From the NCBI RefSeq assembly GCF_021531975.1, contig NZ_JAFBIY010000001.1, forward strand, positions 186,001 to 250,000: a stretch of DNA of 64,000 nt, in the 5' to 3' direction. Shown one piece after another: positions 48,579-64,000 of this stretch; positions within the stretch are counted from its first letter, which is position 1; each line of letters starts with the position of its first letter. Position numbers and translations under genes: made by a program. A model generated the notes under the pieces. It did not search any database. It was not told where the DNA came from and was given only the letters and a program-made list of their open reading frames with translations. The DNA is from Faecalicatena contorta. Lineage in GTDB: Bacteria > Bacillota > Clostridia > Lachnospirales > Lachnospiraceae.

Positions 48579-49268
48579 ATGCGCAGGATAAAACCAATAA
48601 TTCAGCATTTTATTTTGTCTGCCACGCTCGCCGTTATATGTAAGTGTCAGCCCAAAACCTAAAAGTGCCCAGGGTTGGGTAAACATGGAGGCATAACCGA
48701 ACGGGATCGCCAGGAGGGGCACATCGTGGAACAGGTAGAAGAAATAACCAATTAAAATAGCGTGGTGCTCATAATCAAGACTTAAATACATGGCCGCAAT
48801 ACACATGACTAAAATAATTAGCCATGATACCAGATACCAGAGCACTTTAGGCAGCTTTTGCATTTTTTCTTTTAATGCATCTATACACCAGATTGTAATC
48901 AGGACGAACGCCAGAGTGAACATGACATTATTCCAGTTCATATTAAAGAAACTTGCTGTTGTAAACATATCAAAAGGCACTTCTGATATAACACCAAATA
49001 TCAGTAAGTTCATCAAATATTTCTTGCGGCTTCGTGTTTTGAAATATCCTTCAACCAGAAGAAAACAAAATAGTGGGAATGCAATTCTGCCGATTATATC
49101 AAACAGATTGCTCACGGCGGTAAGGGCTCCGTCATTTGAAACCAGATTAGGATAAATCAGTGCCTTGTTTACGTGGTCGATAAGCATGGAAATAATTGCG
49201 ATCAGCTTTAGCCATGCCCCTGAAAGAAATTGAACTTTGTTGCAAAGACGGTTGATTTTTTCGGTCAT
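48537..49268 (-). CDS. TraX family membrane protein
   Basis: Start 49268 follows AGAGAGGAAATC. The 243-residue protein has about seven membrane segments. LKLIAIISMLIDHVNKALI, RIAFPLFCFLLVEGYFKTR and a terminal FYPAHLLILGILR are the TraX signature. TraX was named for pilin acetylation in F plasmid transfer; chromosomal Firmicutes copies are common and their substrate is unknown. No conjugation genes are near. Confidence 0.85.
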   Translation of the reverse strand: MTEKINRLCNKVQFLSGAWLKLIAIISMLIDHVNKALIYPNLVSNDGALTAVSNLFDIIGRIAFPLFCFLLVEGYFKTRSRKKYLMNLLIFGVISEVPFDMFTTASFFNMNWNNVMFTLAFVLITIWCIDALKEKMQKLPKVLWYLVSWLIILVMCIAAMYLSLDYEHHAILIGYFFYLFHDVPLLAIPFGYASMFTQPWALLGFGLTLTYNGERGRQNKMLNYWFYPAHLLILGILRLYLGI

Positions 49269-49379
49269 ATGATTTCCTCTCTCTGTCATTCATACCAGAT
49301 TACCTGTGCCATTCGTAGTATGGACGATAGCTTCATTATACAGTATGGTGAAGGGAAAAGGTAGTGGATAATGATTTGA

Positions 49380-49408
49380 TTGAATTGTGTACAGGTAGAT
49401 GCTATACT
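49380..49408 (+). promoter_or_regulatory. Probable promoter of the NCS2 permease gene
   Basis: TTGAAT (49380-49385) and TATACT (49403-49408) have a 17-base spacer, about 75 bases ahead of ATG 49486. I looked for a purine riboswitch in this leader and saw no convincing one. Confidence 0.65.
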
Positions 49409-49485
49409 TTGTTTGGAAGAAGTGATCGTAGGATTTTGGCGTTTCACAAATACCTGATAATTATAAAATAAAAAGGGGAACAATA

Positions 49486-50838
49486 ATGGCAAAAGAAAAA
49501 AATGTAACAAGTATCAGTAATATTTACCGGTTGGAAGGTCGGGTTCCTGTTGCGAAGGCAATTCCATTCGGTTTCCAACATGTATTAGCAATGTTCGTAG
49601 CAAATGTAACTCCGTTAATTATTATTGCAGGTGTTGCAGTATATAATGGACAGGCATTTACGCAAATAGAGACGGCGCAATTGATTCAGAATTGTATGCT
49701 TGTGGCAGGTCTTGGTACATTGATTCAGCTTTATCCTATCTGGAAAATAGGATCCGGACTTCCGATCGTTATGGGGTTAAGCTTTACTTTTTTAGCTGCA
49801 TGTCTTGCATCGGCTTCTCAGGATTACGGATACATGATAGGTGGCATCATCGTTGGTGGATGTATTGAAGGGGTCTTAGGTCTTACTGCAAAATACTGGA
49901 GGAAGCTGATCCAGCCTATTGTAGCCGGATGTGTAGTTACATCGATTGGTCTTAGTATTTTAAATGTAGGTGTTTCTTCTTATGCAAATTCTGCAAAATA
50001 TGAAACTGGGGCATGGCAAAATCTTCTGGTTGCTACTGTTACATTAATTGCCTGTCTGTCATTTCATGTATTTGCAAAAGGCGTTCTTAAGCAGTTGAAT
50101 GTATTATTCGGCCTGATTGTTGGATATATTGTTGCTATTTGTTTTGGAATGGTAGATTTCTCGGCAATGGGCACCACGATTTCACAACTGGGGGTATTTT
50201 CATTTCCTTCATTATTTGCTTACGCACCCAAATTTAACATTGGTATTATTATTTCATTTGTTATTGTTTTTTTAGTTTCTGCAGTGGAAACAATCGGAGA
50301 TACCACAGCTGCATGTACAGGTGCTCTTGGAAGAGATATTACCGATGAGGAAGTCAGTGGTTCTTTGGCTGTGGACGGATTTATGTCAGCGATTGCCGGA
50401 GGTGTATTCGGCGTATCACCCATTACGTCATTTAGCCAGAATGTTGGCCTTTTAAAAATGACAAAAGTTGTCAATCGTTTTACTATCATGTTTGGTGCAT
50501 TATTGTTGATCTTTGGTGGTTTATTCCCGCCAATTGGAGCATTTCTATCGACTCTGCCGGATTGTGTTCTTGGCGGATGTACCGTTATTATGTTTGGCTC
50601 TATTGTTGTTGCCGGATTCGAAATGATTGCAAAAGTAGGATTCAATCATAGAAATATGATCATTGTTGCCACGTCTCTGTGTGTAGGTGTTGGCGTAACA
50701 CAGGTAGAAGGTTTCTTTTCCGGGTTGCCATCGATTTTCGGGGACATATTCGGATCCAACATGGTTGCCGGTGTTTTCGTAATTGCACTTGTTTTGAGTT
50801 GGGTGCTGCCAAAAGATATGGAAATAGAAAGTGAGTAA
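49486..50838 (+). CDS. NCS2 family purine permease (xanthine/urate type)
   Basis: A 450-residue protein behind AAAAAGGGGAAC, with about 12-14 membrane segments. PFGFQHVLAMFVANVTPLII opens it; the NAT signature reads QNVGLLKMTK, with Gln first as in xanthine/uric-acid carriers rather than Glu as in uracil carriers. ETIGDTTAACTGAL supplies the substrate Glu. Proton- or sodium-coupled nucleobase uptake is expected. Confidence 0.88.
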   Translation: MAKEKNVTSISNIYRLEGRVPVAKAIPFGFQHVLAMFVANVTPLIIIAGVAVYNGQAFTQIETAQLIQNCMLVAGLGTLIQLYPIWKIGSGLPIVMGLSFTFLAACLASASQDYGYMIGGIIVGGCIEGVLGLTAKYWRKLIQPIVAGCVVTSIGLSILNVGVSSYANSAKYETGAWQNLLVATVTLIACLSFHVFAKGVLKQLNVLFGLIVGYIVAICFGMVDFSAMGTTISQLGVFSFPSLFAYAPKFNIGIIISFVIVFLVSAVETIGDTTAACTGALGRDITDEEVSGSLAVDGFMSAIAGGVFGVSPITSFSQNVGLLKMTKVVNRFTIMFGALLLIFGGLFPPIGAFLSTLPDCVLGGCTVIMFGSIVVAGFEMIAKVGFNHRNMIIVATSLCVGVGVTQVEGFFSGLPSIFGDIFGSNMVAGVFVIALVLSWVLPKDMEIESE

Positions 50839-50932
50839 TAGGGCAGACAGCGAAACAGTTTGGAAAACTACCATATATGTGGTAGTGATAATAAAGAGCT
50901 GAACATGAGTTGGATTTTTACGATAAAATGAA

Positions 50933-50966
50933 TGGGAAAGCTGAGGTCTATCTATCAGCTTTCCCA
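50933..50966. terminator. Hairpin between convergent permease genes
   Basis: Perfect 12-base arms TGGGAAAGCTGA and TCAGCTTTCCCA with a 10-base loop. It lies 95 bases past the NCS2 stop and 10 past the cstA stop on the other strand. T-runs are weak. Confidence 0.6.
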
Positions 50967-50975
50967 TGATAACTA

Positions 50976-52661
50976 TTATGATATGTTTTCCTTTTCCATA
51001 AGTTTCTTAACACCCTGTATTGCTACAATGATGCCAAGAACCAAAAGCAATGCTGCAAATATCAGCTGCATTGTATTTCCAAGGCTCAGCCCTGTTGTTA
51101 CAAATGCTTTTGATAATTTTACGATTGTCAATCCCAATGCTGTGAATGTAACGGCCATCATGAATACCATAGGAATCCAAAGCATTACACCCTGTCTTTT
51201 TGTCTTTTTCAGGAATACTGCACAGGCAACCAGTGCCAGTACAGATAACAACTGGTTTGCAGAACCGAACAGAGGCCAGATTTCTGCGTAGCCGACTTTG
51301 GCAAGAAGGTATGCCAATACCAGTGTTAAAATGGTTGCAAAATACTTATTGGTTACAACTTTCAAAAATGGACTCATATTGTCATCATCAACATCTTCAT
51401 CTATGAAGAATTCCTGGAAGGACAATCGTCCAACTCTGGCTACAGAGTCCAATGAAGTCAGTGCAAATGCAGATACCGCAAGAGTAATCAATGTATATAC
51501 CAATGAATGCGGGAGACCAATGACTGACAGGAAATTGGCAATTGCACCAGCAAATATCTGAGGCTGTGTTGTCAGACCCTGGGATGCAGCTTCACCCTTT
51601 GCAAAAGAAGCAACTGCAATCAGTGCGATAATAGCAAGCATACTTTCCATCAGCATTGCACCGAAAGATACCGGCAGCATATTTTTTTCATTTTTTATCT
51701 GTTTGGAAGCAGTACCGGAAGAAACCAGAGAATGGAATCCTGATACCGCACCACAGGCAATAGTAACAAACAAAATCGGGAACAGATACTGTCCATCTAC
51801 ATTGAATCCGGTAAATGCTTTCAGGTTACAGGATGGATTGGATACAAATACTCCGATCACGGCTCCGGCGATCATAAAGATCAGCAGATAACTGTTCAGA
51901 TAATCTCTTGGCTGCAGCAATGCCCATACCGGCGCAACACACGCAATTAAAACATAAGCAAATATAATCAGATGCCATACATCACGGCTTAGATAAATCG
52001 GGAACTGCAATCCAAGTACTACTGCTGCGACAAGCATTACAATTGCAATTGCTGTATTTACCCATTTATTTAATTTTGCATATTTCAAAATCATGCCCAA
52101 TACAACAGCCTCTATAATAAACAGTACGGATGTTGTGGCAACGGCACCGTTTGCAGCTACTTTAGAAACAACTCCAGACTCATCTGCCACGAAGCCGTTA
52201 AATGTACCGGCTACCACATCTGCAAATGCTGCAACAACCAAAATGCAGAACAGCCAAGTGAACAGCAGGAACAGTTTCTTACCAAGTTTTCCGATATATT
52301 CTTCAATAATATATCCAATTGTACGTCCTTTATTTTTTACAGAAGCATACATTGCTGCAAAATCCTGTACAGCTCCGAAAAATACGCCACCAATCAATAT
52401 CCAGAGTAATACCGGAAGCCATCCAAAGATAGCAGCCTGAATTGGTCCATTGATTGGTCCTGCACCTGCAATGGATGCAAATTGATGACCAAATACCACA
52501 TTGGTATCTGCCGGTACATAATCCACACCGTCCTGAAGTTCATAAGCCGGTGTTTTTGCGTTTGGGTCTATTCCCCATTTTTTCTGGAGATATCTCCCGT
52601 ACAGAAGATATGCACCTCCAAGTACTACAATGGCGATAACCATCATTAAGATTCCACTCAT
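50976..52661 (-). CDS. cstA: CstA family transporter (peptide/pyruvate)
   Basis: A 561-residue protein with about 14 hydrophobic segments. The conserved CstA sequences are visible: FGHQFASIAGAGPINGPIQA, WILIGGVFFGAVQDFAAMY, SGFHSLVSSGTASKQI and SLDSVARVGRL. CstA proteins import peptides or pyruvate. An AGAGGT site precedes the start. Upstream, on the same strand, stands a T-box leader, so expression should respond to an uncharged tRNA, which fits amino-acid or peptide scavenging. Confidence 0.92.
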   Translation of the reverse strand: MSGILMMVIAIVVLGGAYLLYGRYLQKKWGIDPNAKTPAYELQDGVDYVPADTNVVFGHQFASIAGAGPINGPIQAAIFGWLPVLLWILIGGVFFGAVQDFAAMYASVKNKGRTIGYIIEEYIGKLGKKLFLLFTWLFCILVVAAFADVVAGTFNGFVADESGVVSKVAANGAVATTSVLFIIEAVVLGMILKYAKLNKWVNTAIAIVMLVAAVVLGLQFPIYLSRDVWHLIIFAYVLIACVAPVWALLQPRDYLNSYLLIFMIAGAVIGVFVSNPSCNLKAFTGFNVDGQYLFPILFVTIACGAVSGFHSLVSSGTASKQIKNEKNMLPVSFGAMLMESMLAIIALIAVASFAKGEAASQGLTTQPQIFAGAIANFLSVIGLPHSLVYTLITLAVSAFALTSLDSVARVGRLSFQEFFIDEDVDDDNMSPFLKVVTNKYFATILTLVLAYLLAKVGYAEIWPLFGSANQLLSVLALVACAVFLKKTKRQGVMLWIPMVFMMAVTFTALGLTIVKLSKAFVTTGLSLGNTMQLIFAALLLVLGIIVAIQGVKKLMEKENIS

Positions 52662-52732
52662 TACCTAATACCTCTTTTCTCTTTTGTCAGGCTCAGATTC
52701 TGTTATGAGCCTGCATTTTTATATGTATCTAT

Positions 52733-53070
52733 AAAAAAAACGCCCTCACAGTCCACACTGGACTGCAAAGGCGGAATTTTCCGTGGTACCACTCTGCTTG
52801 CCGTAATCAATCAACGACCCCTCTTCATGAATCTGTCATATGAAACAGTCTCTCCTGTAACGTAGAGAAAACGTCCTTACTTACTTGCACCTTTCAACGT
52901 ATCAACTTGATTGTTTATGCTTTTGGCAGGATGCTCCAGGGTGATGTCTCAGGAAGGCTTTCTGTCATCTCTCACCAGCTAACGACTCTCTGTGCTCCGG
53001 TATCTTCCTGTGATGTATCCCTCTCATCGCATTTTTTGGAACTTTTTTTATGGTTCCTTCGCTTTTGATA
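52733..53070 (-). promoter_or_regulatory. T-box leader upstream of cstA, probably isoleucine-specific
   Basis: On the minus strand the leader has a stem I with AGAGAG and a GCTGGTGAGAG apical part, a k-turn-like base (GATGAG with GGAGCATC), the T-box AGAGTGGTACCACGG at about 52793-52779, and a terminator (52774-52741) ending in eight T. In the specifier loop TGAGACATCACCC the codon placed before the conserved A is ATC (52945-52943), i.e. isoleucine. The base after TGG in the T-box is T, demanding discriminator A, as in tRNA-Ile; the alternative GAC (Asp) would need G. Confidence 0.88.
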
Positions 53071-53076
53071 AGCTAT

Positions 53077-53104
53077 ATTATAGCACCTTTTTTCATTAGC
53101 ACAA
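53077..53104 (-). promoter_or_regulatory. Probable promoter of the T-box/cstA transcript
   Basis: TTGTGC (53104-53099) and TATAAT (53082-53077) with a 16-base spacer on the minus strand, just ahead of the T-box leader. The stretch 53105-53336 shows no gene or clear signal. Confidence 0.6.
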
Positions 53105-53336
53105 GCTGCGAATTGTATATATTCAACATATTTTGTGTATGATTTTTGGGCAATTTCACCAAGAAAAAACAAAGAGGATATCGACTTTGAAGTAGCAAAA
53201 ATAGAAGAGTTTGACCATAAGCATAAGAAACATTGCTTGTTCAATATTCTTCGGATGAAAAACCAGGCCAAGATACTTTGTGCTAAAACGAATCGAAAGA
53301 AATCAGTAAAATACTAACGCGTAAGAAGAAATTACA

Positions 53337-53366
53337 GCATAATGATATTCACTCCCTGCATACATT
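53337..53366 (+). promoter_or_regulatory. Candidate sigma-E promoter of spoIIID
   Basis: GCATAAT (53337-53343), 15 bases, then CATACATT (53359-53366) fits the mother-cell sigma-E consensus, as known for spoIIID in Bacillus. Transcription would begin near 53373, about 22 bases before the start codon. Confidence 0.6.
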
Positions 53367-53387
53367 GTAAAAACAATGAATGCAGGG
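53354..53387 (+). other. Hairpin covering the spoIIID ribosome binding site
   Basis: CCCTGCAT-A-CATTGT pairs with ACAATG-A-ATGCAGGG around an AAAA loop: 14 pairs and one mismatch. The AGGGG at 53384-53388 is the only ribosome binding site for spoIIID and lies in the right arm. Only transcripts from upstream would contain both arms, because the sigma-E promoter starts inside the loop region. TTTT follows, so it may also terminate. Confidence 0.6.
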
Positions 53388-53394
53388 GTTTTGT

Positions 53395-53652
53395 ATGAAA
53401 GATTATATTGAGGAACGGGCGGTAGAGATAGGGTATTATATTATCGAGCATAAGGCGACTGTAAGGCAGACAGCGAAACGGTTCGGGATAAGTAAGAGTA
53501 CTATACATAAAGACGTCACAGAGCGTCTTTCTCAGATCAATCCATCTCTTGCTGCGGAAGCACGTAAGGTCCTGGATGTGAATAAGTCCGAGCGTCATAT
53601 CCGTGGTGGACTGGCTACCAGAGAGAAATATTTGCATATGGAACATCGTTAG
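53395..53652 (+). CDS. spoIIID: Sporulation transcription regulator SpoIIID
   Basis: An 85-residue protein. MKDYIEERAVEIGYYIIEHK, the HTH TVRQTAKRFGISKSTIHKDV and a C-terminal SERHIRGGLATREKY are all SpoIIID hallmarks. It is a small DNA-binding protein acting in the mother cell after sigma-E, activating sigK and spore-coat genes and repressing others. It is monocistronic; the next promoter is at 53668. Confidence 0.95.
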   Translation: MKDYIEERAVEIGYYIIEHKATVRQTAKRFGISKSTIHKDVTERLSQINPSLAAEARKVLDVNKSERHIRGGLATREKYLHMEHR

Positions 53653-53667
53653 GGAAGAGTCTTAGAT

Positions 53668-53696
53668 TTGACCTGTAAAAATATTGATGCTATAGT
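53668..53696 (+). promoter_or_regulatory. Probable promoter of the MATE-jetABCD operon
   Basis: TTGACC (53668-53673), 17-base spacer, TATAGT (53691-53696); 35 bases ahead of ATG 53732. No other strong promoter was seen up to jetD. Confidence 0.7.
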
Positions 53697-53731
53697 ATTT
53701 TTGCTTATAAGAAAAACAGAAGGTGAGTGCT

Positions 53732-55072
53732 ATGGCAAAAAATATGACAGAAGGCAGACCGCTCCGTTTGATTCTTCAGTTTGCGGTCCCACTTCTTATG
53801 GGAAATCTATTACAGCAAACATACAATATCATTGATGCTGCGATTGTAGGAAGGGTGCTCGGTACGCAGGCGTTGGCGGCTGTTGGCTCGACGAGCAGCG
53901 TGCAGTTTCTGGTACTGGGATTTTGTATTGGTTCCTGCGCGGGATTCGGTGTACCGATCGCGAAATGTTTTGGCGCGGGTAAGATGGAAGATATGCGGAA
54001 TTATATCTTTAATTCGATGGTGATAGCGGCAGGAGTAGCTCTGGTTATGACGGTATCCTGTGCGCTTCTTTGCCCGTGGATATTACATATTCTTTCGGTC
54101 CCGGATGAAATATATGCGGATGCATATCGGTATCAGCTGGTGATCTTCCTTGGAATTCCTTTTACAATTTTATATAATCTTTTGTCCAGTATCTTAAGAT
54201 CCGTCGGAGACAGCAGGACGCCGTTTGTCTTCCTGGCTATTTCAACCATATTAAATATCGGGCTGGATGCTTTTTGTATTGTCGTGTTGAAATGGGGATG
54301 CGCAGGAGCTGCCATTGCAACGATTGCTGCGCAGGCGCTGAGCGGTATTATGTGTGCGGTATTTATCTGGAAAAAGGTACCGGTCATCAAGCCTTCGCGC
54401 AGGGAGTGTGTGTGCAGAGCAAAGGTGTCGAAGAACCTGCTTGTTATGGGCTTGCCGATGGGACTGCAGTTTTCGATTACGGCTATTGGAAGCATGGTCA
54501 TGCAGTCGGCAAATAACAGTCTCGGAAGTGTCTATGTATCTGGATTTACAGCGGGTATGCGCCTGAAGCAGTTCCTGATGTGTCCGTTTGATGCCATTGG
54601 CTCGGCGGTGTCTGTTTTCTGCGGGCAGAATCTGGGCGCAGGGAAGATACAGAGGATTCGTTCGGGTATACGGACCGGACTTGTGATTGCGATTATTTAT
54701 GGACTGGTGATCGGAGTCGTTATGATTCTGTTCGGAAGACCACTTTCTCTAATCTTTGTCAGTGAAGAAGCGGGAGAGGTATTAGATGCTTCTGCGAAAT
54801 ATCTGCGGTGTATGGGATATTTCTTCTGGAGTCTTGCGATTTTGAATATCTGCAGAATGAGTACACAGGGACTGGGATTCTCCGGACGGGCAATTTTCTC
54901 CGGAGTAACAGAAATGTTTGCAAGAATTATTGTAAGCCTTGGTTTTGTGCGATATTATGGATATACAGCAATCTGTTTTGCAGATCAGACGGCATGGGTG
55001 ACAGCATGTCTTTATATTGTGCCGATGTGTTTTATATGTGTGAAGAAGATATCCAGGGAGAAAGATCGATGA
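53732..55072 (+). CDS. MATE family multidrug/solute exporter
   Basis: ATG 53732 follows AAGGTGAG; 446 residues, twelve membrane segments in two halves. LLMGNLLQQTYNIIDAAIVG, SSILRSVGDSRTPFVFLA and MGLPMGLQFSITAIGS are standard MATE sequences. It exports cationic compounds by ion antiport; substrate unknown. Its TGA (55070-55072) overlaps the jetA start, so this gene is the leader of the Wadjet operon. A second MATE gene lies on the far side at 62169. Confidence 0.9.
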   Translation: MAKNMTEGRPLRLILQFAVPLLMGNLLQQTYNIIDAAIVGRVLGTQALAAVGSTSSVQFLVLGFCIGSCAGFGVPIAKCFGAGKMEDMRNYIFNSMVIAAGVALVMTVSCALLCPWILHILSVPDEIYADAYRYQLVIFLGIPFTILYNLLSSILRSVGDSRTPFVFLAISTILNIGLDAFCIVVLKWGCAGAAIATIAAQALSGIMCAVFIWKKVPVIKPSRRECVCRAKVSKNLLVMGLPMGLQFSITAIGSMVMQSANNSLGSVYVSGFTAGMRLKQFLMCPFDAIGSAVSVFCGQNLGAGKIQRIRSGIRTGLVIAIIYGLVIGVVMILFGRPLSLIFVSEEAGEVLDASAKYLRCMGYFFWSLAILNICRMSTQGLGFSGRAIFSGVTEMFARIIVSLGFVRYYGYTAICFADQTAWVTACLYIVPMCFICVKKISREKDR

Positions 55073-56469
55073 ATTTGATGAGTAAGATTCCAAGAGAGTT
55101 TTATAAGCTTTTTGCAAGTAAATATATGGAATATTATATGCGGTTTCTTGTAGAGATCTACGAGGAATCAGGGAGATCCTATTCGCTTCTCGGGCTTACA
55201 GAGCGGGAGTGCCGCGCGATTATGAATGAGTGGATCGCCGCGGAGACACTGGACTGGAGTGCGGAGCAGTTTGATGAGGAAGGGGAGCTTCTGACCCGGT
55301 CAAATATGGCATTTGTCTGCCTTAGGCATCTGGAGGAATGGGGATGGCTCCGGAAGGATTATGATGAAGCACTGAACAGCTATGTGGTATCATTTCCGGA
55401 ATACAGTCAGCAGTTTGTGGAGCTTTTTAAACGGCTGTACAGTGAGGACAGCACGAAGGAGCGCGAGAGTGTGCTGGCGGTCTACAGTTATCTGTACACA
55501 TATCGGGCAGATAAGGAAAAGAATAATGAGATCTTAAAAAGTGCGCTGCAGACATCCCGGTCGCTTCTGCAGATGCTTTCGAATATGCAGGAGGGCATGC
55601 GGGGATATTTTGATGAATTATCGAAACAGAGGAGCTTTCTCGGGATTCAGGAAGTGCTTGTAAAGGAGATCAATAACAGCGACAGTAAGAAGTATGCGAT
55701 CCTTACGACGACGGACAGCTTCTATCGTTACAAGGAGGCGGTGAAGGAGCTGATCGATCAGAACTTAAGTGAAAATGAAGTGAGAAAGCAGGAACTTCTG
55801 GATAAGCAGCAGGAACAACGTGAAGAATCCGAGATCGTGAGAAGGCGCACAGAGCGTGCGGTTGCCCTCTGTGATGAAGCGATGGATATGATTTACCGGA
55901 TCGAGCGGGAATTTGACGCGATCGAGAGAAGATATAATAAGCTGATCGAGCAAAAGACAGTATTTGCCAATCGTGCGGCGGCACGCATCCGCTATATTCT
56001 TGCGGAAGGGGCAGTGGAAGAAGACCAGACGATTACCCTTGTCAATATTCTGAATCAGAGTGACAGGCAGGAAGAGATTCTGGAAAAGCTGGCAGAGCGG
56101 ATGCATCTTACGGAACGTTATCATGTTGTGACAGAGAGAAGCCTGTTCCGCAGGAGAGAATCAGAGAAGGGAAGCTTTGAACCGCAGGCAGTTATCCGAG
56201 AAGAGGAACAAAGCGGGGAACTGGATACATTTGTATTGAAGCCTCTTTATACCGGTAAGGAGATTGCCGAGTTCAGAAGAAAGAATGTGAAAGACGGAAG
56301 ATTTACGGTGACAGAGGAGACCGTGCAGTCGATCGAGGATCTGGAAAAGTTATTCTTCGTCTGGCAGGAAGCAACAGAGATTGCGGAAAGTGACAGGGAG
56401 ATTACCGTGGGAGAAGAACTGGAGAGCAAAGAGGGATACCGTTTCTCTTCTCTTACCATGAGAGAATAG
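55069..56469 (+). CDS. jetA: Wadjet system protein JetA (DUF5716, MukF-like)
   Basis: ATG 55069 has GGGAG eight bases upstream and overlaps the MATE stop as ATGA; a longer in-frame reading would run far into the MATE gene and is rejected. The 466-residue protein starts MNLMSKIPREFYKLFASKYM, has a winged-helix-like N-terminus, a long charged coiled middle (about 220-310) and a C-terminal segment ending SSLTMRE. It is the kleisin-type subunit linking the SMC heads in Wadjet. It appears to be of the DUF5716 kind rather than the DUF3375 kind of type I systems (recognition, not a search). Confidence 0.85.
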   Translation: MNLMSKIPREFYKLFASKYMEYYMRFLVEIYEESGRSYSLLGLTERECRAIMNEWIAAETLDWSAEQFDEEGELLTRSNMAFVCLRHLEEWGWLRKDYDEALNSYVVSFPEYSQQFVELFKRLYSEDSTKERESVLAVYSYLYTYRADKEKNNEILKSALQTSRSLLQMLSNMQEGMRGYFDELSKQRSFLGIQEVLVKEINNSDSKKYAILTTTDSFYRYKEAVKELIDQNLSENEVRKQELLDKQQEQREESEIVRRRTERAVALCDEAMDMIYRIEREFDAIERRYNKLIEQKTVFANRAAARIRYILAEGAVEEDQTITLVNILNQSDRQEEILEKLAERMHLTERYHVVTERSLFRRRESEKGSFEPQAVIREEEQSGELDTFVLKPLYTGKEIAEFRRKNVKDGRFTVTEETVQSIEDLEKLFFVWQEATEIAESDREITVGEELESKEGYRFSSLTMRE

Positions 56470-56499
56470 TGCGCAAAGTGCGAGGAAAGGAACGAAAGA

Positions 56500-57135
56500 A
56501 TGGTTTCATATATAGAAGAATTATCTGTAACCGAAGCAGAAAATCTGAAAAAGACAATATCAAAATTATTCAGGCAGACTTGCATTCTCCAGATGCGGTA
56601 TGATCCGGTGACGCTCACACCGAGAGATAATCTGGATTATGAGATGTGTATCAGACACAAAGGATTTATTGAGGATTACCTGTCTGTTCTTGGATGTGAG
56701 CTTGTGCATGATCCGCAGGAGCATATTTTCCGGCTGGAGGGAGAAGGTGTAGAGACGGAACGGATAAGTCCTGCGACTACAATTATTATTTTACTTGTGA
56801 AAATGATCTATCGTGATAAGATTCTCGGTGATGGGCTCAATGCCACAGTGACAACATTGACAGAGATCCGTGAATATGGAAAGAATACGAATCTTCTGAA
56901 CCGCAAACTTACGGTAGCTGAGTGGCGGGAAGCACTGTATCTTATGAGTAAACACCAGATGATCGAGCTGCCGGGAGCAGTGCGTGATGTGGAGGATCAC
57001 ACACCGATTTATTTATACAGTACGATTAATCTTTATGTCAGCGCTTCGGATATCGGGGAGCTGATCGAAGAGTACAGAGAGGAGGCCGCAGAGAATGAAA
57101 CAATCAAAGAAGATATTTTCCCGGATGCTGATTAA
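56500..57135 (+). CDS. jetB: Wadjet system protein JetB (DUF4194, MukE-like)
   Basis: A 211-residue protein behind AGGAAAGG. It has a winged-helix pattern (ENLKKTISKLFRQTCILQMR, DYEMCIRHKGFIEDYLSVLG, TTIIILLVKMIYRDKILG) typical of the DUF4194 MukE-like subunit. It bridges kleisin JetA and DNA in the JetABC SMC complex. It overlaps jetC by 41 bases, indicating translational coupling and balanced subunit production. Confidence 0.87.
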   Translation: MVSYIEELSVTEAENLKKTISKLFRQTCILQMRYDPVTLTPRDNLDYEMCIRHKGFIEDYLSVLGCELVHDPQEHIFRLEGEGVETERISPATTIIILLVKMIYRDKILGDGLNATVTTLTEIREYGKNTNLLNRKLTVAEWREALYLMSKHQMIELPGAVRDVEDHTPIYLYSTINLYVSASDIGELIEEYREEAAENETIKEDIFPDAD

Positions 57136-60100
57136 CAACTGGGGTGGTATCAGCCATAAGATGATGGAGTTTCATGAGTATGTGAATCTCTTCAGTGGTA
57201 AGAGCGGCTCCGGAAAATCGACGGTCATGGATGCAATTCAGGTGGTGCTATACGGAAGTGTAGCTTCTACATTTTTAAATAAAGCGGCAGATGATTCGAA
57301 AAACAAAAGAAGTGTGCTGAGCTACTTACGGGGCGCACAAAAGGATGGAACATCGAATCGGGAAAATGTGGATTTCTGTTCCCAGATCGTGCTGGAAATT
57401 GTGGATACCGGAAGCCGGATGACGACTTGTATCGGCGCTGCATTTGAAGTTGGGAAAAATGATCTGGATCTGAAGAAATATTGTTTTTTCAGTCACTGCG
57501 GGCGGATGCCTGAGGATGAATATCTGACGGAAAAAGGCACGCCGTATACCGTGGATCAGTTGAAAAAACTTATAGATGCAAGAAGTAAGTCCGAGGATAA
57601 CCGGGGACGCGTGGATGTGAATCGCATCTATCCGTCCAAAGAAGCTTATCTGAATACCGTGTACGATACGATTTTCGGCTATATTGATCCGGGACGGCTG
57701 ATGACGATGGAGAAAAGTGCGATTGCACTTCGTATGACGAACGGAACGGGTCAGTTTATCAAGGATTATATGTTCCCGAAGAGCAAGGAGGATACGGTTT
57801 CCACGATCAGTGAACAGCTCGGGGCATACCGGGAGATCAAGGAACGTGTGGATGACCTGGAGCACCGCATTGCGCTTCTGGATGAGATACATACACATGA
57901 TCTTAAGCTGCTTCAGGCGAAAGCGGATAAGGTGCGGACGGAAAGTATCTTACGGCTCATGGATATCGAGAACTGTAAGACAAGGATAGAGGCGAAGGAG
58001 GAGGACTTAAGGGGAATCCTTGCGCGTATTTCCGAGCTGGAGGAAAAGAGAGATTCACTGGATGCACAGAAGAAGGAGAAGACGGAAGAACTGATTCATG
58101 TGCAGGCAGATCTGCAGGCAAGTGATTATGGTGTAAAGAAGAAAGAACTGGATGATCTGGAGACGACCATTCAGCTGCTTGCAGGTAATTCCAGACAGTG
58201 GAGAGAGATATTAAATGGCCTGCGTGCATGGGAAGAGGATGAAGACATCAGCAGCTATGTAAGCAACCCGACACTGCAGAGTCTGGATGACGTGCTGGAC
58301 GGCGAGGTGTCTGTTCCGATTCTTGAGAAATTAAAACAAGGGCTTCAGAATGCGCTGGAGCTGATCGGCGAAGAACTGGAACACTTAAATGAAAGTATTC
58401 GTCTGGCAACGAGAGAGCTGAATGAGAAGAAGGAAATGGTGGAGGATCTGAAAAATGACCGCAAGCCATACCGGAAAGAGCTGAAAAGTGCGAGAGCCCA
58501 GCTGCAGAGTGAACTCAGCAGTCAGTATGGACGTACGATTCATGTGGAGATCTTTGCAGATCTGTTTGATATTACAGATGAAAAATGGAAAAACGCGATC
58601 GAAGGAAGACTGGGACGCATCAAACACAGCCTTGTGACAGCACCGCAGTATGCACTGGATGCGGCAAAAATATTCCGTAGAATGAAGAAAAAGGAATATG
58701 AGGAAATTGATCTTATAAATACAGCGGCGATCAAACGGGACGAGCCGCAGGCAGAGGAAGGAACTTTGTACGATGCTGTTTCGGCTTCCGAACCGTATGT
58801 GGACATGTGTCTGAAACGATACCTGGGACGTATTTACAAGTGCGAGACAGTGGAAGAACTGCACGAGGTTCGTGATGGGGTGACACCGGACTGCTATTCC
58901 TACAGCAATTACATTTTCCGCCATTTGCGAGAGGCGGATTATACTCGCTATGCCTGCATCGGAACAAAAGTATCCAAAGAGAAGCTCCGGGAACTGGAAG
59001 ATGAGGTATACGAGCTTCAGAAGAGCCAGCTTGCCGATATGCAGATGCGCGACACGTTGAAGCAGGCGCAGAGCTTTGAACAGCTCAATCAGAATCCAGA
59101 GCAGCTTCTGCAGCTTTCCTATGCGCCAGATGAGCTTCAGAATTATCTGGAAAAACAAGAACAGTTAAGACGCGAGCTTCGAAAACTGGAAGACGGTACT
59201 CTGACAGCGCAGCTCAAAGACCACAAAGAGAAACTGGATCAGGAGATTGCAGAGCTTGATCGCATCCTGGATTCTGTCAATAAGGAACGTATCAACTGTG
59301 AACGAGATCAGGGGTCTGTAACAAAGGAATGGGATGATTTCAAAGAGAAGCTTGCGAATCTGGAAGAAGGATTCATAGTGAATGAAGAACTTCTGGCAGA
59401 AGTAAGAGAGAATCTGGAAGTTCGGTCGGAGACGGTTTATCGAAGAGAACAGAATAAGCATCTGGAGGTGCTTATAAAAGCAGAAGAGACGGAGACCGAG
59501 CAGCGCGCCATCGCCCGCAACCAGTTCAACCGTGAGTATCCGGCATACGGATTTACCGGGGTGGAGCACGAAAACGACAGGTACGATAAAGTGCTTGATC
59601 AGCTTAAGAAAGACTTTGAACCGAAGTATAAGGTGGAATTCGAAAATCAGTATCGGACGGTTTACCGCAGTCTTCGCGAAAATGTGATTGCCACCATTCA
59701 CGGCGAGATTAAGGCGGCATACCGGCACAAGAGAGAAATCAACCGGATGCTTTCAAAGATTCGCTTCTCCGACAGTACATATCAGATCGATATTCTGCCG
59801 GCGGAAAATGAGAATGGGCAGTTCTATGAGATGCTGATGGCACCGGAGCTGGACAGTAAGGTGATGGACGACGGTGGCTTTGAAGGACAGCTGAGCCTTG
59901 GGGAAGATGAATTTTATCAGAAATACGAAAAGCAGATCCAGCGGCTGACGGAGAAATTCATGCCTCCGAGAGAGGAAGATGGACAGAAACGTTCTCTGCA
60001 TAAACAGGAGATGGAAAAATATGCAGATTACCGTAATTATCTGACCTTCAGCATGTATGAAAGAGTAGAGGACGAGCAGGGCAATGTAAAGAAGAATGCA

Positions 60101-60451
60101 GTAGATGAAATGGCAGGACGCGATTCCGGAGGAGAAGGACAGAATCCGAAATACGTGGCACTCCTGGCCGGTTTTGCCATGCTCTACATGCAGCAGAGTA
60201 ACCGGGATTCCCGTATTCGTCTTGTGCTTCTGGATGAAGCATTTTCCAAAATGGATAAGGAGCGAAGCGAGGTATGCCTGCGCTATGCGAGAGAGCTGGA
60301 ATTACAGTTGATTGTATGTGTACCGGATGAACGTCTGCAGTCTCTGATCCGTAACGTGGACAGTGTATATGGTTTCCGCAGATATCAGAATCAGATTTCC
60401 ATGATGCATATCGATAAAGGGAATTATCTGGAGATGATCGAGGGAGAGTAG
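57095..60451 (+). CDS. jetC: Wadjet system SMC-like ATPase JetC (MukB-like)
   Basis: An 1118-residue protein behind GAGGAGG. Walker A GKSGSGKST is at 35-43; the ABC signature SGGEGQ is at about 1011 and Walker B LVLLDEAFSKMD at 1043-1054. Long coiled coils flank a hinge-like centre (about 500-640). JetC is the motor that extrudes DNA loops and recognises small circular DNA, presenting it to JetD. All ATPase motifs are intact. Confidence 0.92.
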   Translation: MKQSKKIFSRMLINNWGGISHKMMEFHEYVNLFSGKSGSGKSTVMDAIQVVLYGSVASTFLNKAADDSKNKRSVLSYLRGAQKDGTSNRENVDFCSQIVLEIVDTGSRMTTCIGAAFEVGKNDLDLKKYCFFSHCGRMPEDEYLTEKGTPYTVDQLKKLIDARSKSEDNRGRVDVNRIYPSKEAYLNTVYDTIFGYIDPGRLMTMEKSAIALRMTNGTGQFIKDYMFPKSKEDTVSTISEQLGAYREIKERVDDLEHRIALLDEIHTHDLKLLQAKADKVRTESILRLMDIENCKTRIEAKEEDLRGILARISELEEKRDSLDAQKKEKTEELIHVQADLQASDYGVKKKELDDLETTIQLLAGNSRQWREILNGLRAWEEDEDISSYVSNPTLQSLDDVLDGEVSVPILEKLKQGLQNALELIGEELEHLNESIRLATRELNEKKEMVEDLKNDRKPYRKELKSARAQLQSELSSQYGRTIHVEIFADLFDITDEKWKNAIEGRLGRIKHSLVTAPQYALDAAKIFRRMKKKEYEEIDLINTAAIKRDEPQAEEGTLYDAVSASEPYVDMCLKRYLGRIYKCETVEELHEVRDGVTPDCYSYSNYIFRHLREADYTRYACIGTKVSKEKLRELEDEVYELQKSQLADMQMRDTLKQAQSFEQLNQNPEQLLQLSYAPDELQNYLEKQEQLRRELRKLEDGTLTAQLKDHKEKLDQEIAELDRILDSVNKERINCERDQGSVTKEWDDFKEKLANLEEGFIVNEELLAEVRENLEVRSETVYRREQNKHLEVLIKAEETETEQRAIARNQFNREYPAYGFTGVEHENDRYDKVLDQLKKDFEPKYKVEFENQYRTVYRSLRENVIATIHGEIKAAYRHKREINRMLSKIRFSDSTYQIDILPAENENGQFYEMLMAPELDSKVMDDGGFEGQLSLGEDEFYQKYEKQIQRLTEKFMPPREEDGQKRSLHKQEMEKYADYRNYLTFSMYERVEDEQGNVKKNAVDEMAGRDSGGEGQNPKYVALLAGFAMLYMQQSNRDSRIRLVLLDEAFSKMDKERSEVCLRYARELELQLIVCVPDERLQSLIRNVDSVYGFRRYQNQISMMHIDKGNYLEMIEGE

Positions 60452-60453
60452 CC

Positions 60454-61677
60454 ATGGCAAAGACTTTGATACAGTGGTTGATCGAGAAAATAGATACAAA
60501 AGATTACCGGGCAGGAAAATTGTCCGGAGAGAAGCATCCTTCAGTAAATAAGGAACTTCTTGAAGCGCTTGGCGGCAGGACAAGTCTTCTGGATCAGGCA
60601 AAAGAGTTCGAAAGAGACAGCGTATTGGGAGGCTCAGGAAAGATTCGGTTCCAGTGGCGTGATATGAATGCGGATATCGATAAGATTCACTATTCCGTGG
60701 ATATAATGCCGGAATTATGCAGAAGAGAAGGAATCGAGGATCCCAGAGCCAGGCAGCTTCGTTATATAGATGTTTTGTCTATGTGGAAGGAAAAAGCGAA
60801 AGATACATGGCTGGAATCCTATTACGAAGATGAGATATCAGGTCTGGAAAAAGGAAACTGCTCATCAGCCATTCAGCGTGAAATGGAGACAGAGAGATTA
60901 TATGCCTGCCTTAACGAAATCATTCATCTCGCGGAACCGGTTGAAAAAAGGATTTTCAGTGCCAGAGTATTTAAAAATGTAATCATACCAGAGGAAAATA
61001 TCACACCTTCGAAAGTATTTGAGAAAAAGTATGAGGGGAAGGTAAACAGCATTCTGGTTAATTACTCTCCGGAGTATGTGGAAGGAATGAGTGCAGATGA
61101 ACTTCTGAAAGCGCATGGAATCTTGTCTTATGCGCAGACGCTGGAGTGGAAAGGGCCGCTTGCCTATCTGTTGGACGGGCATATTATGGTTGATACTTCA
61201 CGGAATCATTATGGAACAATAATAGGTGCGCAGACGCTGGAACATGCAGTTCCCAAGGCGCTTTTTGGAGTAAAAAAAGTTATGCTGATCGAGAATAAGG
61301 CGAACTATGAAAAGATGAGTTTCAGCGAGAGCGACCTGTATATCTATTGTCACGGTTTTTTCTCTCCAAAAGAAATCAGATTTTTAAAAAAGATAAATGA
61401 AATTGCAGATCCTGAGGTAGCATTCTATCACTGGGGAGATCTGGACTATGGCGGTATCCGGATATTCCAGTATAATAAGAAAAATGTTTTTCCAAAGCTG
61501 TTGCCATATAAGATGTCTGCTGCGGATTATGAGCAGGCAATTGAAGCAGGAGCAGGCGTGCATATAGACAAGAAAAAACGTGAGAAAATGGCGCAAATGG
61601 ATGCAGGTCTTCTGGAGAAACTGAAATGTTGTATACTGGAACGGGACATGGAAGTGGAACAAGAACTACTCGTTTAG
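60454..61677 (+). CDS. jetD: Wadjet system nuclease JetD (DUF3322/DUF2220, Toprim-like)
   Basis: A 407-residue protein starting two bases after jetC. The N-terminal half is the DUF3322-type arm/winged region (FQWRDMNADIDKIHYSVDIM). The C-terminal half is DUF2220 with a Toprim-like site: a Glu in VMLIENKANYE and the DxD of HWGDLDYGGIRIF (Asp 329, 331). JetD is related to the Spo11/Topo VI A nuclease and cuts plasmid DNA held by JetABC. All acidic residues I can place are present, so the system looks functional. Confidence 0.9.
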   Translation: MAKTLIQWLIEKIDTKDYRAGKLSGEKHPSVNKELLEALGGRTSLLDQAKEFERDSVLGGSGKIRFQWRDMNADIDKIHYSVDIMPELCRREGIEDPRARQLRYIDVLSMWKEKAKDTWLESYYEDEISGLEKGNCSSAIQREMETERLYACLNEIIHLAEPVEKRIFSARVFKNVIIPEENITPSKVFEKKYEGKVNSILVNYSPEYVEGMSADELLKAHGILSYAQTLEWKGPLAYLLDGHIMVDTSRNHYGTIIGAQTLEHAVPKALFGVKKVMLIENKANYEKMSFSESDLYIYCHGFFSPKEIRFLKKINEIADPEVAFYHWGDLDYGGIRIFQYNKKNVFPKLLPYKMSAADYEQAIEAGAGVHIDKKKREKMAQMDAGLLEKLKCCILERDMEVEQELLV

Positions 61678-61810
61678 TATATTTTGCCACGCTACTTTGA
61701 TAAAGTTGTATAGAAATGGATAAAATTGGAAAATAATTTTGTGTAATCTCTCTCTTTTTTTCGAAAAAAAACTGTGCTAATATGTGTGTAATCAAAAAGG
61801 AGAGATGATT

Positions 61811-62041
61811 ATGAATAAAACAAAAGTAAATTTTAAGAATCCTGATGATGTAAAAAACTTTGTAAAAACAGTAGAAAAGTATCCATACAGTATGGATATG
61901 AAAAGAGGTAGATATATTGTTGATGCCAAGTCGCTTCTTGGACTGATGAATTTAGGACTGAATAAAGATATTGAACTGGATGTATATGAAGAAGACTGTA
62001 GCGATCTTTTTGATGCAATCAAACAATATGTTGCAGCTTAG
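61811..62041 (+). CDS. Crh/HPr-like regulatory protein
   Basis: ATG 61811 has AAGGAGA eight bases upstream; 76 residues. The second half (YIVDAKSLLGLMNLGLNKDI, ELDVYEED) closely follows HPr/Crh around Ser46, which is retained. The His15 loop is replaced by NFKNPDDVKNF, so PTS phosphotransfer is not expected. This resembles Crh, the Bacillus co-regulator of catabolite repression that lacks His15. A more divergent relative is at 29949. Confidence 0.7.
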   Translation: MNKTKVNFKNPDDVKNFVKTVEKYPYSMDMKRGRYIVDAKSLLGLMNLGLNKDIELDVYEEDCSDLFDAIKQYVAA

Positions 62042-62062
62042 TATTTCCTGTTTGCATGAAAG

Positions 62063-62100
62063 ACTCCTTATTGCTTTTATTAGCGGTAGGGAGTTTTTTT
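62063..62100 (+). terminator. Intrinsic terminator after the Crh-like gene
   Basis: ACTCC and GGAGT arms with inner TA pairs are followed by seven T (62094-62100). Confidence 0.75.
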
Positions 62101-62168
62101 CTGCCCTTTTGGACAGTTGCCGAAGGAGCTCTGGAGTGATAAGATATCTATATAAGGAGTAAAGAAAA

Positions 62169-63515
62169 ATGGGGATAAGAAAAGATTATCTGTTTGACAA
62201 CAGGGCACTGACTGTTTTGATTATTCCACTCATTATTGAGCAGTTTCTTGCGGTACTTGTTGGCATGGCAGATTCCATTATGATTGCAAGTGTGGGGGAA
62301 GCGGCAGTATCCGGAGTGTCACTGGTAGACCAGATCATGGTACTTATTATGAATATATTCTCTGCCCTGGCAACAGGAGGAGCGGTTGTAGCCGGTCAGT
62401 ACCTTGGACAAAAAAATAAAGTGCAGGCATGTCGTTCAGCAACACAGCTTATATGGTCTGTTACAGTCCTGGCACTAGGCATTATGGCGATTGTGTATGC
62501 CGGAAAATATGTGATTCTGCATGGTGTATTTGGACAGATAGAGCCGGATGTTATGCAACATGCAGATACTTATCTGATGATCGTGACGGCATCTATTCCA
62601 TTTATTGCACTGTATAATGGCGGCGCAGCAATCTTTCGTACAATGGGAAATTCCAAAATGTCCATGCGTGTGTCACTGATTATGAATGTAATCAATGTAA
62701 GTGGAAATGCGATTCTGATCTATGGATTTCACCGGGGTGTAGAAGGCGTTGCGATTCCGACGCTTGTATCTCGTATGGTTGCATCATTTGTGATTCTGTG
62801 GTTCCTGTGTGATGAAACACAGACGATTTATGTGAAAAAGAGTTTTCGTTTTCATCCGGACTGGACGATGATCAGGAAGATTCTGAGTGTGGGTATTCCA
62901 AACGGCCTGGAAAACAGTATGTTTCAGCTTGGAAAAATACTTGTGCTGAGTCTTGTATCTACGTTTGGCACATATGCAATTGCTGCAAATGCGATCAGCA
63001 ATACGATTTCTTTGTTTGCGATTCTTCCGGGAATGGCAATCTGTCTGGCAGTAACTACTGTTATTGCACGATGTGTAGGTGCAGGAGATTATGAACAGGT
63101 AAAATATTATAATAAAAAGCTCCTCATTCTTACACATATAAGTATGGCCGTTATGGTTGCCGCAGTATTGGCGCTTCTTCCGTTTATTTTGAAAGTGTAT
63201 CATCTGTCAGACAGGACGGCTGAAGTAACAAGGCAGATCGTCTGGTTCCACGGAATTTGCTCTATCTTTCTGTGGCCGCCGTCTTTTACTGTTCCGTACA
63301 CGTTCCGTGCAGCAGGAGATGCAAAGCTGTGTATGATTGTATCCACGGTTTCCATGTGGGTTTTCCGGGTTGGTTTCAGCTATATGCTTGGAAAATATAT
63401 GGGGCTTGGAGTATTCGGTGTATGGGTAGCAATGATTATTGACTGGGTATTCAGATCCATTTGTTTTGGTATCCGGTATTTTCAGGGCGGCTGGAAGAAA
63501 AAAGCAATTGTATAA
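62169..63515 (+). CDS. MATE family exporter, second copy
   Basis: A 448-residue protein with AAGGAG before ATG 62169. ALTVLIIPLIIEQFLAVLVG, MADSIMIASVGEAAVSGVSL and GGAAIFRTMGNSKMSMRVSL identify the MATE family. It is only distantly like the 53732 MATE protein (different start and first helix), so the two are not a recent duplication. The following aldo/keto reductase is 21 bases downstream and probably cotranscribed. Confidence 0.9.
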   Translation: MGIRKDYLFDNRALTVLIIPLIIEQFLAVLVGMADSIMIASVGEAAVSGVSLVDQIMVLIMNIFSALATGGAVVAGQYLGQKNKVQACRSATQLIWSVTVLALGIMAIVYAGKYVILHGVFGQIEPDVMQHADTYLMIVTASIPFIALYNGGAAIFRTMGNSKMSMRVSLIMNVINVSGNAILIYGFHRGVEGVAIPTLVSRMVASFVILWFLCDETQTIYVKKSFRFHPDWTMIRKILSVGIPNGLENSMFQLGKILVLSLVSTFGTYAIAANAISNTISLFAILPGMAICLAVTTVIARCVGAGDYEQVKYYNKKLLILTHISMAVMVAAVLALLPFILKVYHLSDRTAEVTRQIVWFHGICSIFLWPPSFTVPYTFRAAGDAKLCMIVSTVSMWVFRVGFSYMLGKYMGLGVFGVWVAMIIDWVFRSICFGIRYFQGGWKKKAIV

Positions 63516-63536
63516 GAATAAAAAGGAGGTTTTGAT

Positions 63537-64000
63537 ATGTATTATAAACAGTATGGAAATACAGATATGAAGGTATCCGCGGTTGGCCTGGGAACGATGC
63601 GGTACGATGAAGAAGATATTCAGGCGGGGCGTCTGGAAAAATGTGCAGAGATTCCTCTGTATGCGTTTGAGAAGGGAATCAATTACTGGGACACAGCACC
63701 GTTTTATTGTGACGATAAGAGCGAGATTGTGACCGGAATCGCGCTCTCTCAGGTTGATCGTAAGAAGGTATACGTTACTTCAAAGACGAACTTAAATACA
63801 TTAGAGACGGAGAAGCCGGATAAGGATATTTTCCGCCGCCGTCTGGAAATGTCACTGGACCGGTTGAAGACAGATTATATTGATTTCTACCATATGTGGT
63901 GTATGCTGAGTCTGGAATCCTGGGAGAAGCATATGGAGGCACTGTATGGATTCTTTGAAGAGGCGAAGGCAGAAGGGCTGATCCGTAATATTGTATTTTC
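63537..64000 (+). CDS. Aldo/keto reductase, N-terminal part (cut by window edge)
   Basis: ATG 63537 follows AAAGGAGGT. The 154 visible residues (YGNTDMKVSAVGLGTMRYDE, GINYWDTAPFYCDDKSEIV, VYVTSKTNLN, RLKTDYIDFYHMW) form the first part of an aldo/keto reductase barrel, with the catalytic Asp and Tyr (DTAPFY) and Lys (SKT). A C-terminal 4Fe-4S domain, common in clostridial members, would be beyond the window. NAD(P)H-dependent carbonyl reduction is expected. Confidence 0.9.
   Translation, partial: MYYKQYGNTDMKVSAVGLGTMRYDEEDIQAGRLEKCAEIPLYAFEKGINYWDTAPFYCDDKSEIVTGIALSQVDRKKVYVTSKTNLNTLETEKPDKDIFRRRLEMSLDRLKTDYIDFYHMWCMLSLESWEKHMEALYGFFEEAKAEGLIRNIVF

What the first reader, a model, noticed from the sequence alone, without database searches (positions are those of the whole stretch)
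53668..61677. Complete Wadjet (jetABCD) operon translationally coupled to a MATE exporter
Seen: intact SMC motifs in JetC, intact Toprim-like DxD in JetD, tight overlaps (jetB/jetC 41 bases, MATE/jetA ATGA), and a single strong promoter ahead of the MATE gene. Known: Wadjet restricts plasmids by loop extrusion and cleavage. Inferred: the exporter is an added, cotranscribed member, which is not part of the described four-gene system. It could be coincidental insertion behind a host promoter or a functional accessory.
Basis: partly seen in the sequence, partly recalled or inferred. Interest (0 to 1): 0.7.

Follow-up and report, generated by a model that had tools for sequence, protein, structure and literature searches.

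The report
Plasmid-defence operon behind unrelated exporter
An intact bacterial anti-plasmid system (Wadjet) sits directly behind a drug-exporter gene that it touches by four bases, but comparison with relatives indicates that the exporter is a resident of that spot and not a part of the defence system.

Summary
The anatomy is real: a complete, intact type I Wadjet operon (jetA 55069-56469, jetB 56500-57135, jetC 57095-60451, jetD 60454-61677) follows a MATE gene (53732-55072) with an ATGA overlap. The MATE is very probably not a Wadjet component. The operon's closest relative (G316/L129, JetA 84-86%) has it at the same site, directly behind spoIIID, without the MATE. Conversely, G124 has the MATE orthologue (80%) in the same spoIIID..HPr-MATE2-guaA neighbourhood without Wadjet. 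Of 120 unique JetA loci with enough upstream sequence, 1 has a co-directional MATE directly upstream, and that one is only 34% identical. Across 396 other genomes, MATE orthologue and JetA co-occur at chance. Best reading: the operon landed behind a resident exporter and may share its transcript; the overlap is incidental. A side result is of more interest: JetABC operons without the nuclease JetD are about as common as complete ones among relatives (37 and 32 of 69 decidable loci), with many changes on the tree and one visible jetD relic.

The parts
53380..53652 (+). spoIIID, sporulation regulator; left landmark of the resident neighbourhood
   Evidence: PF12116 6.8e-43; TIGR02844 above its cut-off
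53668..53696 (+). sigma-70-like promoter match TTGACC-17-TATAGT with extended -10, ahead of the MATE gene
   Evidence: the number of such matches in the region is at shuffle level
53732..55072 (+). MATE1, MATE-family exporter (ORF from GTG 53723; likely start ATG 53732, inferred from spacing); resident gene, not part of Wadjet
   Evidence: PF01554 1.5e-52; orthologue 80% in G124 in the same neighbourhood without Wadjet
55069..56469 (+). jetA, kleisin-type subunit of Wadjet type I; overlaps the MATE stop by ATGA
   Evidence: PF18982 1.8e-85; PADLOC JetA1 760.6 bits
56500..57135 (+). jetB, KITE-type subunit
   Evidence: PF13835 7.5e-10; PADLOC JetB1 367.9 bits
57095..60451 (+). jetC, SMC ATPase; overlaps jetB by 41 bases
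   Evidence: PADLOC JetC1 1503.3 bits; Walker A, signature and Walker B present
60454..61677 (+). jetD, Toprim nuclease
   Evidence: PF09983 2.9e-16; PADLOC JetD1 444 bits; E280, D329, D331 invariant in 24 sequences
61811..62041 (+). HPr-like protein (ORF from GTG 61784); right landmark of the resident neighbourhood
   Evidence: PF00381 1.1e-6; below the NCBIfam cut-offs; beside MATE2 in relatives
62169..63515 (+). MATE2, a second resident MATE exporter, only 21-25% identical to MATE1 over parts
   Evidence: PF01554 1.6e-46; beside guaA in relatives
63537..64000 (+). start of an aldo/keto reductase gene (runs off the window; G000:C11:249537-250661); its orthologue stands directly behind MATE1 in G124
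   Evidence: PF00248 1.2e-32; 90% identical to the G124 gene

Best explanation
This is a complete type I Wadjet anti-plasmid operon lying in an old chromosomal neighbourhood (spoIIID ... HPr-MATE2-guaA). It stands directly behind a resident MATE exporter whose stop codon now overlaps the jetA start. By homology, JetABC extrudes loops on small circular DNA and JetD cuts it. The exporter probably contributes only a promoter and read-through transcription; the four-base overlap may help ribosomes pass from MATE to jetA, but the MATE protein has no role in plasmid restriction. Shown: gene content, intact motifs, overlaps, absence of the MATE from the same operon at the same site in the closest relative, presence of the MATE orthologue in the same neighbourhood without Wadjet. 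Inferred: one transcript, order of events, plasmid restriction.
For: G316/L129 has UraA-spoIIID-jetABCD-MarR-HPr-MATE2-guaA with no MATE1. G124 has spoIIID-phosphoglucomutase-MATE1 (80%)-aldo/keto reductase (90% identical to the window genome's, which lies behind MATE2)-MarR-kinase-regulator-HPr-MATE2-guaA, all on one strand, with no jet genes there. Of 52 genomes whose loci went into, 18 show spoIIID near MATE2 or guaA in one locus; only G316 of these has jet genes there. The 29 best MATE1 relatives outside the window gene have no jet gene within about 1.5 kb. 1 of 120 unique JetA loci with enough upstream sequence has a co-directional MATE directly upstream. Co-occurrence in 396 other genomes is at expectation: 1 against 1.0 for close JetA, 5 against 5.9 for any JetA.
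Against: 5 MATE genes (in 4 loci) lie within 2.5 kb upstream of jetA against 2.3 expected from the loci's own background (Poisson P 0.08), so a weak enrichment is not excluded; 3 of the 5 are divergent. L177 does have a co-directional MATE 186 bases upstream. Only one Wadjet-free genome (G124) shows MATE1 in this neighbourhood, and the window's genus has a single genome held. The co-occurrence test rests, which scored only the best few candidates per genome. An ancestor with both genes and later losses would give the same pattern.
Confidence: 0.87

Rival explanations
1. The MATE is a newly recruited functional accessory of this one Wadjet operon, for instance exporting a toxic compound met together with plasmids, or tying jet expression to drug exposure.
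For: ATGA overlap and same strand; terminator-like sites in the region are not above shuffle level; one further co-directional case, L177.
Against: Absent from the same operon at the same site in the closest relative; orthologue lives there without Wadjet; the L177 MATE is only 34% identical; no co-occurrence.
Confidence: 0.04
2. Ancestral five-gene arrangement: the common ancestor of the window genome and G316 had spoIIID-MATE1-jetABCD and G316 lost the MATE.
For: Both share the same insertion site; G124 shows that MATE1 can be in this neighbourhood.
Against: G316 has 138 bases with its own jetA leader between spoIIID and jetA and a MATE1 relative (72%) on another contig. Even if true it makes the MATE dispensable, not a component.
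Confidence: 0.25
3. Misassembly or gene-calling artefact joins the MATE to jetA.
For: The genome is a draft of 34 contigs.
Against: The junction lies inside a 505-kb contig; both reading frames are intact across it; the MATE protein resembles relatives almost to its end.
Confidence: 0.03

Closest known systems
Wadjet type I (JetABCD / EptABCD / MksBEFG)
   Same: Four genes in order A-B-C-D, PADLOC type-1 profiles as best hits for all four, intact SMC and Toprim motifs.
   Different: Preceded by an overlapping MATE gene that is not part of the system. No PDB chain matched JetD (E up to 0.01) or a JetA profile (E up to 0.1), so it is far by sequence from the solved complexes.
MksBEF condensin of Pseudomonas (JetABC-like without JetD)
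   Same: Many near relatives of the window operon are JetABC without JetD. [quoted passage not shown]
   Different: The window operon keeps an intact JetD.
MATE-family exporter (TIGR00797 subfamily)
   Same: MATE1 passes the TIGR00797 cut-off (175.6 against 147.4 bits).
   Different: Reaches the cut-off of none of the 12 listed MATE equivalog models; substrate unknown.

Membership tests
Wadjet type I | jetA, jetB, jetC, jetD adjacent on one strand | tested here: met
Wadjet type I | subunits match type I rather than type II/III profiles | tested here: met
   JetA1, JetB1, JetC1 and JetD1 best in PADLOC; JetD2 and JetD3 far weaker
Wadjet type I | SMC ATPase motifs in JetC | tested here: met
   Walker A, signature and Walker B found (motif patterns recalled)
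Wadjet type I | Toprim catalytic acids in JetD | tested here: met
   E280, D329, D331 invariant in 24 sequences (their catalytic role is recalled)
Wadjet type I | restricts plasmids | not testable with these tools
   needs a transformation or conjugation assay; reported for a Clostridium cellulovorans Wadjet (PMC12287153, passages seen)
MATE as a Wadjet component | recurs next to jetA beyond chance | tested here: not met
   1 of 120 loci co-directional and adjacent; 5 MATE genes within 2.5 kb upstream against 2.3 expected, P 0.08
MATE as a Wadjet component | orthologue co-occurs with jet genes across genomes | tested here: not met
   1 observed against 1.0 expected, 5 against 5.9
MATE transporter | MatE domains | tested here: met
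   PF01554, two stretches
MksBEF-type condensin (no JetD) | absence of the nuclease subunit | tested here: not met
   window jetD is present and intact

The most novel reading that the evidence does not exclude
In Lachnospiraceae, type I Wadjet repeatedly sheds its nuclease: closely related JetABC operons exist with and without JetD, the nuclease-free ones are mostly intact and under purifying selection, and they act as a chromosomal loop-extruding condensin. The window operon would be an armed member of a clade in which several near sisters have been disarmed, a natural experiment in turning a plasmid-defence machine into a chromosome organiser.
Probability: 0.5. Interest if true: 0.58.

Novelty: new member of a known kind. 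Interest (0 to 1): 0.3.

Why it matters
For the finding itself: it guards against adding a fifth, exporter subunit to Wadjet on the strength of one gene overlap. What may matter more is the by-product. The idea that a condensin such as MksBEF came from Wadjet by loss of JetD is stated in a review for Pseudomonas (PMC10586767, passages). Lachnospiraceae offer many close pairs (for example L151 with JetD, L158 with only a relic) in which it could be tested directly.

Tried and rejected
Considered that MATE1 is a duplicate of MATE2: rejected, 21-25% identity over parts. Looked for mobile-element borders: no inverted repeats and only weak direct repeats inside jetC across 53300-62200, no tRNA in the window, so the mode of insertion is unknown. 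RNA families in 48000-64000: none at gathering threshold. Placing the MATE/jetA junction to the base: the stretch GGGAGAAAGATC before the jetA ATG resembles jetA leaders of relatives, while the MATE C-terminus SREKDR resembles GRKDR in G124, so the breakpoint stays ambiguous. Solved-structure sequence searches: nothing for JetD or the JetA profile, only weak Rad50 hits for JetC. Searches for MATE1 in the genera of G124 (3 genomes) and G316 (1 genome) added no new orthologue. Compared JetA/B/C columns between loci with and without JetD for a decayed JetD interface: the largest differences slightly exceed label shuffles that ignore kinship; judged inconclusive.

Correction made on checking: the MATE profile was built from four MATE proteins only, because five others on the - strand had been lost by a filter. 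One search repeated the count with nine; the same 12 MATE genes were found and the conclusion did not change.

Literature: five searches in an open-licence library; nothing on a MATE partner of Wadjet or on JetD-free JetABC in Bacillota was seen in the listings, which is no proof of absence.

Full report
What is there. The + strand carries spoIIID (53380-53652), a MATE exporter (MATE1, 53732-55072, with an upstream GTG at 53723), jetA (55069-56469), jetB (56500-57135), jetC (57095-60451), jetD (60454-61677), an HPr-like gene (about 61811-62041) and a second MATE gene (MATE2, 62169-63515). Pfam and PADLOC identify all four Jet proteins, with type I profiles best for each. JetC has Walker A, signature and Walker B, and JetD has the glutamate and the DxD that are invariant in 24 aligned JetD sequences. 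The ATGA overlap and the 41-base overlap are as described. The promoter-like site at 53668-53696 exists, but such matches are at the level of shuffles (15 against a mean of 15.1) and one of equal score lies inside the MATE gene.

Is the MATE part of the system? The window's genus holds one genome. In 397 genomes of the family, JetA was found in 66, the window's own included; I fetched the neighbourhoods of 60 of the 65 others and 80 named loci (the cap; 93 relatives were confirmed) from a GTDB-based collection. Eight of the 140 repeated others, leaving 132, of which 120 have more than 1.3 kb upstream of jetA. A MATE profile built first from four and then, after a check, from nine MATE proteins of the window genome found the same 12 MATE genes in 11 of the 132 loci. 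One (L177, an uncultured Lachnospiraceae) stands directly upstream of jetA on the same strand, 186 bases away; it is 34% identical to MATE1. Within 2.5 kb upstream there are five MATE genes in four loci, three of them divergent; elsewhere in the same loci there are seven in 920 kb, so about 2.3 would be expected in the 303 kb upstream, Poisson P 0.08. The linkage does not clearly exceed chance, though a weak enrichment is not excluded.

Where does the MATE belong? The closest relative of the operon, G316 (the same contig as L129, Faecalicatena contorta ET55; JetA 84-86%), has jetABCD at the same site: UraA, spoIIID, jetABCD, a MarR-family gene, HPr, MATE2, guaA, with 138 bases between spoIIID and jetA and no MATE between them. 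Its nearest MATE1 relative (72%) is on another contig. G124, whose only JetA hit is a distant one (30%) on another contig, has spoIIID, a phosphoglucomutase, the MATE1 orthologue (80%), an aldo/keto reductase, a MarR-family gene, a kinase-regulator pair, HPr, MATE2 and guaA, all on one strand. That reductase is 90% identical to the one that begins at 63537 in the window, behind MATE2. Of 52 genomes whose loci went into, 18 show spoIIID and MATE2 or guaA within one locus, and only G316 of these has jet genes there; the window genome was among the 52 but its two loci in that script were too short to count. The 29 other best MATE1 relatives have mixed neighbours and no jet gene within about 1.5 kb. 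Across 396 other genomes, MATE1 orthologues (E 1e-150 or better, 36 genomes) and close JetA (E 1e-100 or better, 11 genomes) share 1, expected 1.0; with any JetA (65 genomes) they share 5, expected 5.9 (from the lists; one search scored only the best few MATE candidates per genome).

Mechanism. The Wadjet operon should work as described for its family: JetABC measures circular DNA by loop extrusion and JetD cuts it (review PMC10586767, passages seen). A natural Wadjet blocks plasmid transfer in Clostridium cellulovorans (PMC12287153, passages seen). The resident exporter gene most likely lends its promoter and read-through. Whether the overlap couples translation is untested.

A side result. 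Relatives of the window operon often lack JetD. With an iterated JetD profile over the 132 loci and a tree of 84 JetA proteins (83 loci with a JetA score of at least 390 bits, plus the window), 32 have JetD (window included; L139 and L156 have it split in two or shortened, and in L199 it lies 2.9 kb behind jetC), 37 have none despite more than 1.3 kb on both sides, and 15 are undecided, mostly because of contig ends. The tree needs 20 changes of state, at least 14 of them forced by well-supported branches of a quick tree; shuffled labels need 23.2 on average, and 54 of 500 shuffles were as low, so the trait is hardly clustered. A tree count cannot tell loss from gain, but L158 keeps a relic of the JetD C-terminus with an internal stop at the end of jetC, and its close relative L151 has the whole gene; it is the only relic found in the 37. 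In 50 whole genomes searched with the JetD alignment, 31 have no JetD match. Seven of the 50 have jetD at the jet locus and all seven matched; of the 43 chosen because their jet locus lacks jetD, 12 have a match elsewhere or a fragment and 31 have none. G209 and G448 give the same match and G145 and G455 are probably one genome too, so the unique numbers are slightly lower; many are drafts. JetC of the 37 has Walker A in 34 and signature and Walker B in 37; the three without Walker A have jetC split into separate frames. Of 31 loci with JetD, 30, 31 and 31 have the motifs. Pairwise dN/dS in seven pairs without JetD is 0.07-0.20 for JetA and 0.06-0.18 for JetC; in five pairs with JetD it is 0.05-0.08 (four computable) and 0.05-0.06; two mixed pairs and one undecided pair fall at 0.06-0.12 and 0.04-0.11: constrained, perhaps a little relaxed (JetA reading frames were taken from their first start, which may add noise). 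Of 20 loci whose flanks were printed, 14 lack jetD, 3 have it and 3 end too soon; by eye no replacement gene is shared behind jetC, except that L136 and L166 lie at the same site. My searches listed no paper on this in Bacillota, within an open-licence library only.

Limits. Neighbourhood counts rest on simple open-reading-frame calling. Genomes are mostly drafts. The order of insertion events rests on one Wadjet-free genome with MATE1 in place (G124) and one Wadjet genome without it (G316). Nothing here measures expression or function.

Noticed in passing
L132, L136, L137, L138, L140, L141, L143, L144, L158, L162, L163, L166, L167, L168, L204 and others: JetA-JetB-JetC operons without jetD are about as common as complete ones among relatives of the window operon (37 and 32 of 69 decidable), with many changes on the tree and mostly intact ATPase motifs.
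   Followed up: partly
L158:7560-7697: Relic of the JetD C-terminus with an internal stop, overlapping the end of jetC; the close relative L151 has full jetD.
   Followed up: yes
L174, L179, L180, L190, L200: jetD lies upstream of jetA (order D-A-B-C) instead of behind jetC.
   Followed up: no
L139:15340-16469 and L156:15367-16271: jetD is split into two frames, possibly decaying or a sequencing error.
   Followed up: no
L136, L166, L172 upstream of jetA: JetABC (without JetD in L136 and L166; L172 undecided, contig end) lies behind the same gene or genes, which look by eye like dapF and an LL-diaminopimelate aminotransferase (names recalled), suggesting inheritance at a fixed site.
   Followed up: no
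window 61811-62041: HPr-like protein without any histidine, so it cannot carry the usual phosphohistidine; relatives stand beside MATE2 in several genomes.
   Followed up: no
window about 52720-53080, - strand, upstream of the cstA-like gene: Looks by eye like a T-box leader (TGGTACCAC motif, recalled) but gave no Rfam match at gathering threshold.
   Followed up: partly
L042/L139, L041, L059: MATE genes divergent from jetA within 0.8 kb upstream in three further genomes.
   Followed up: partly
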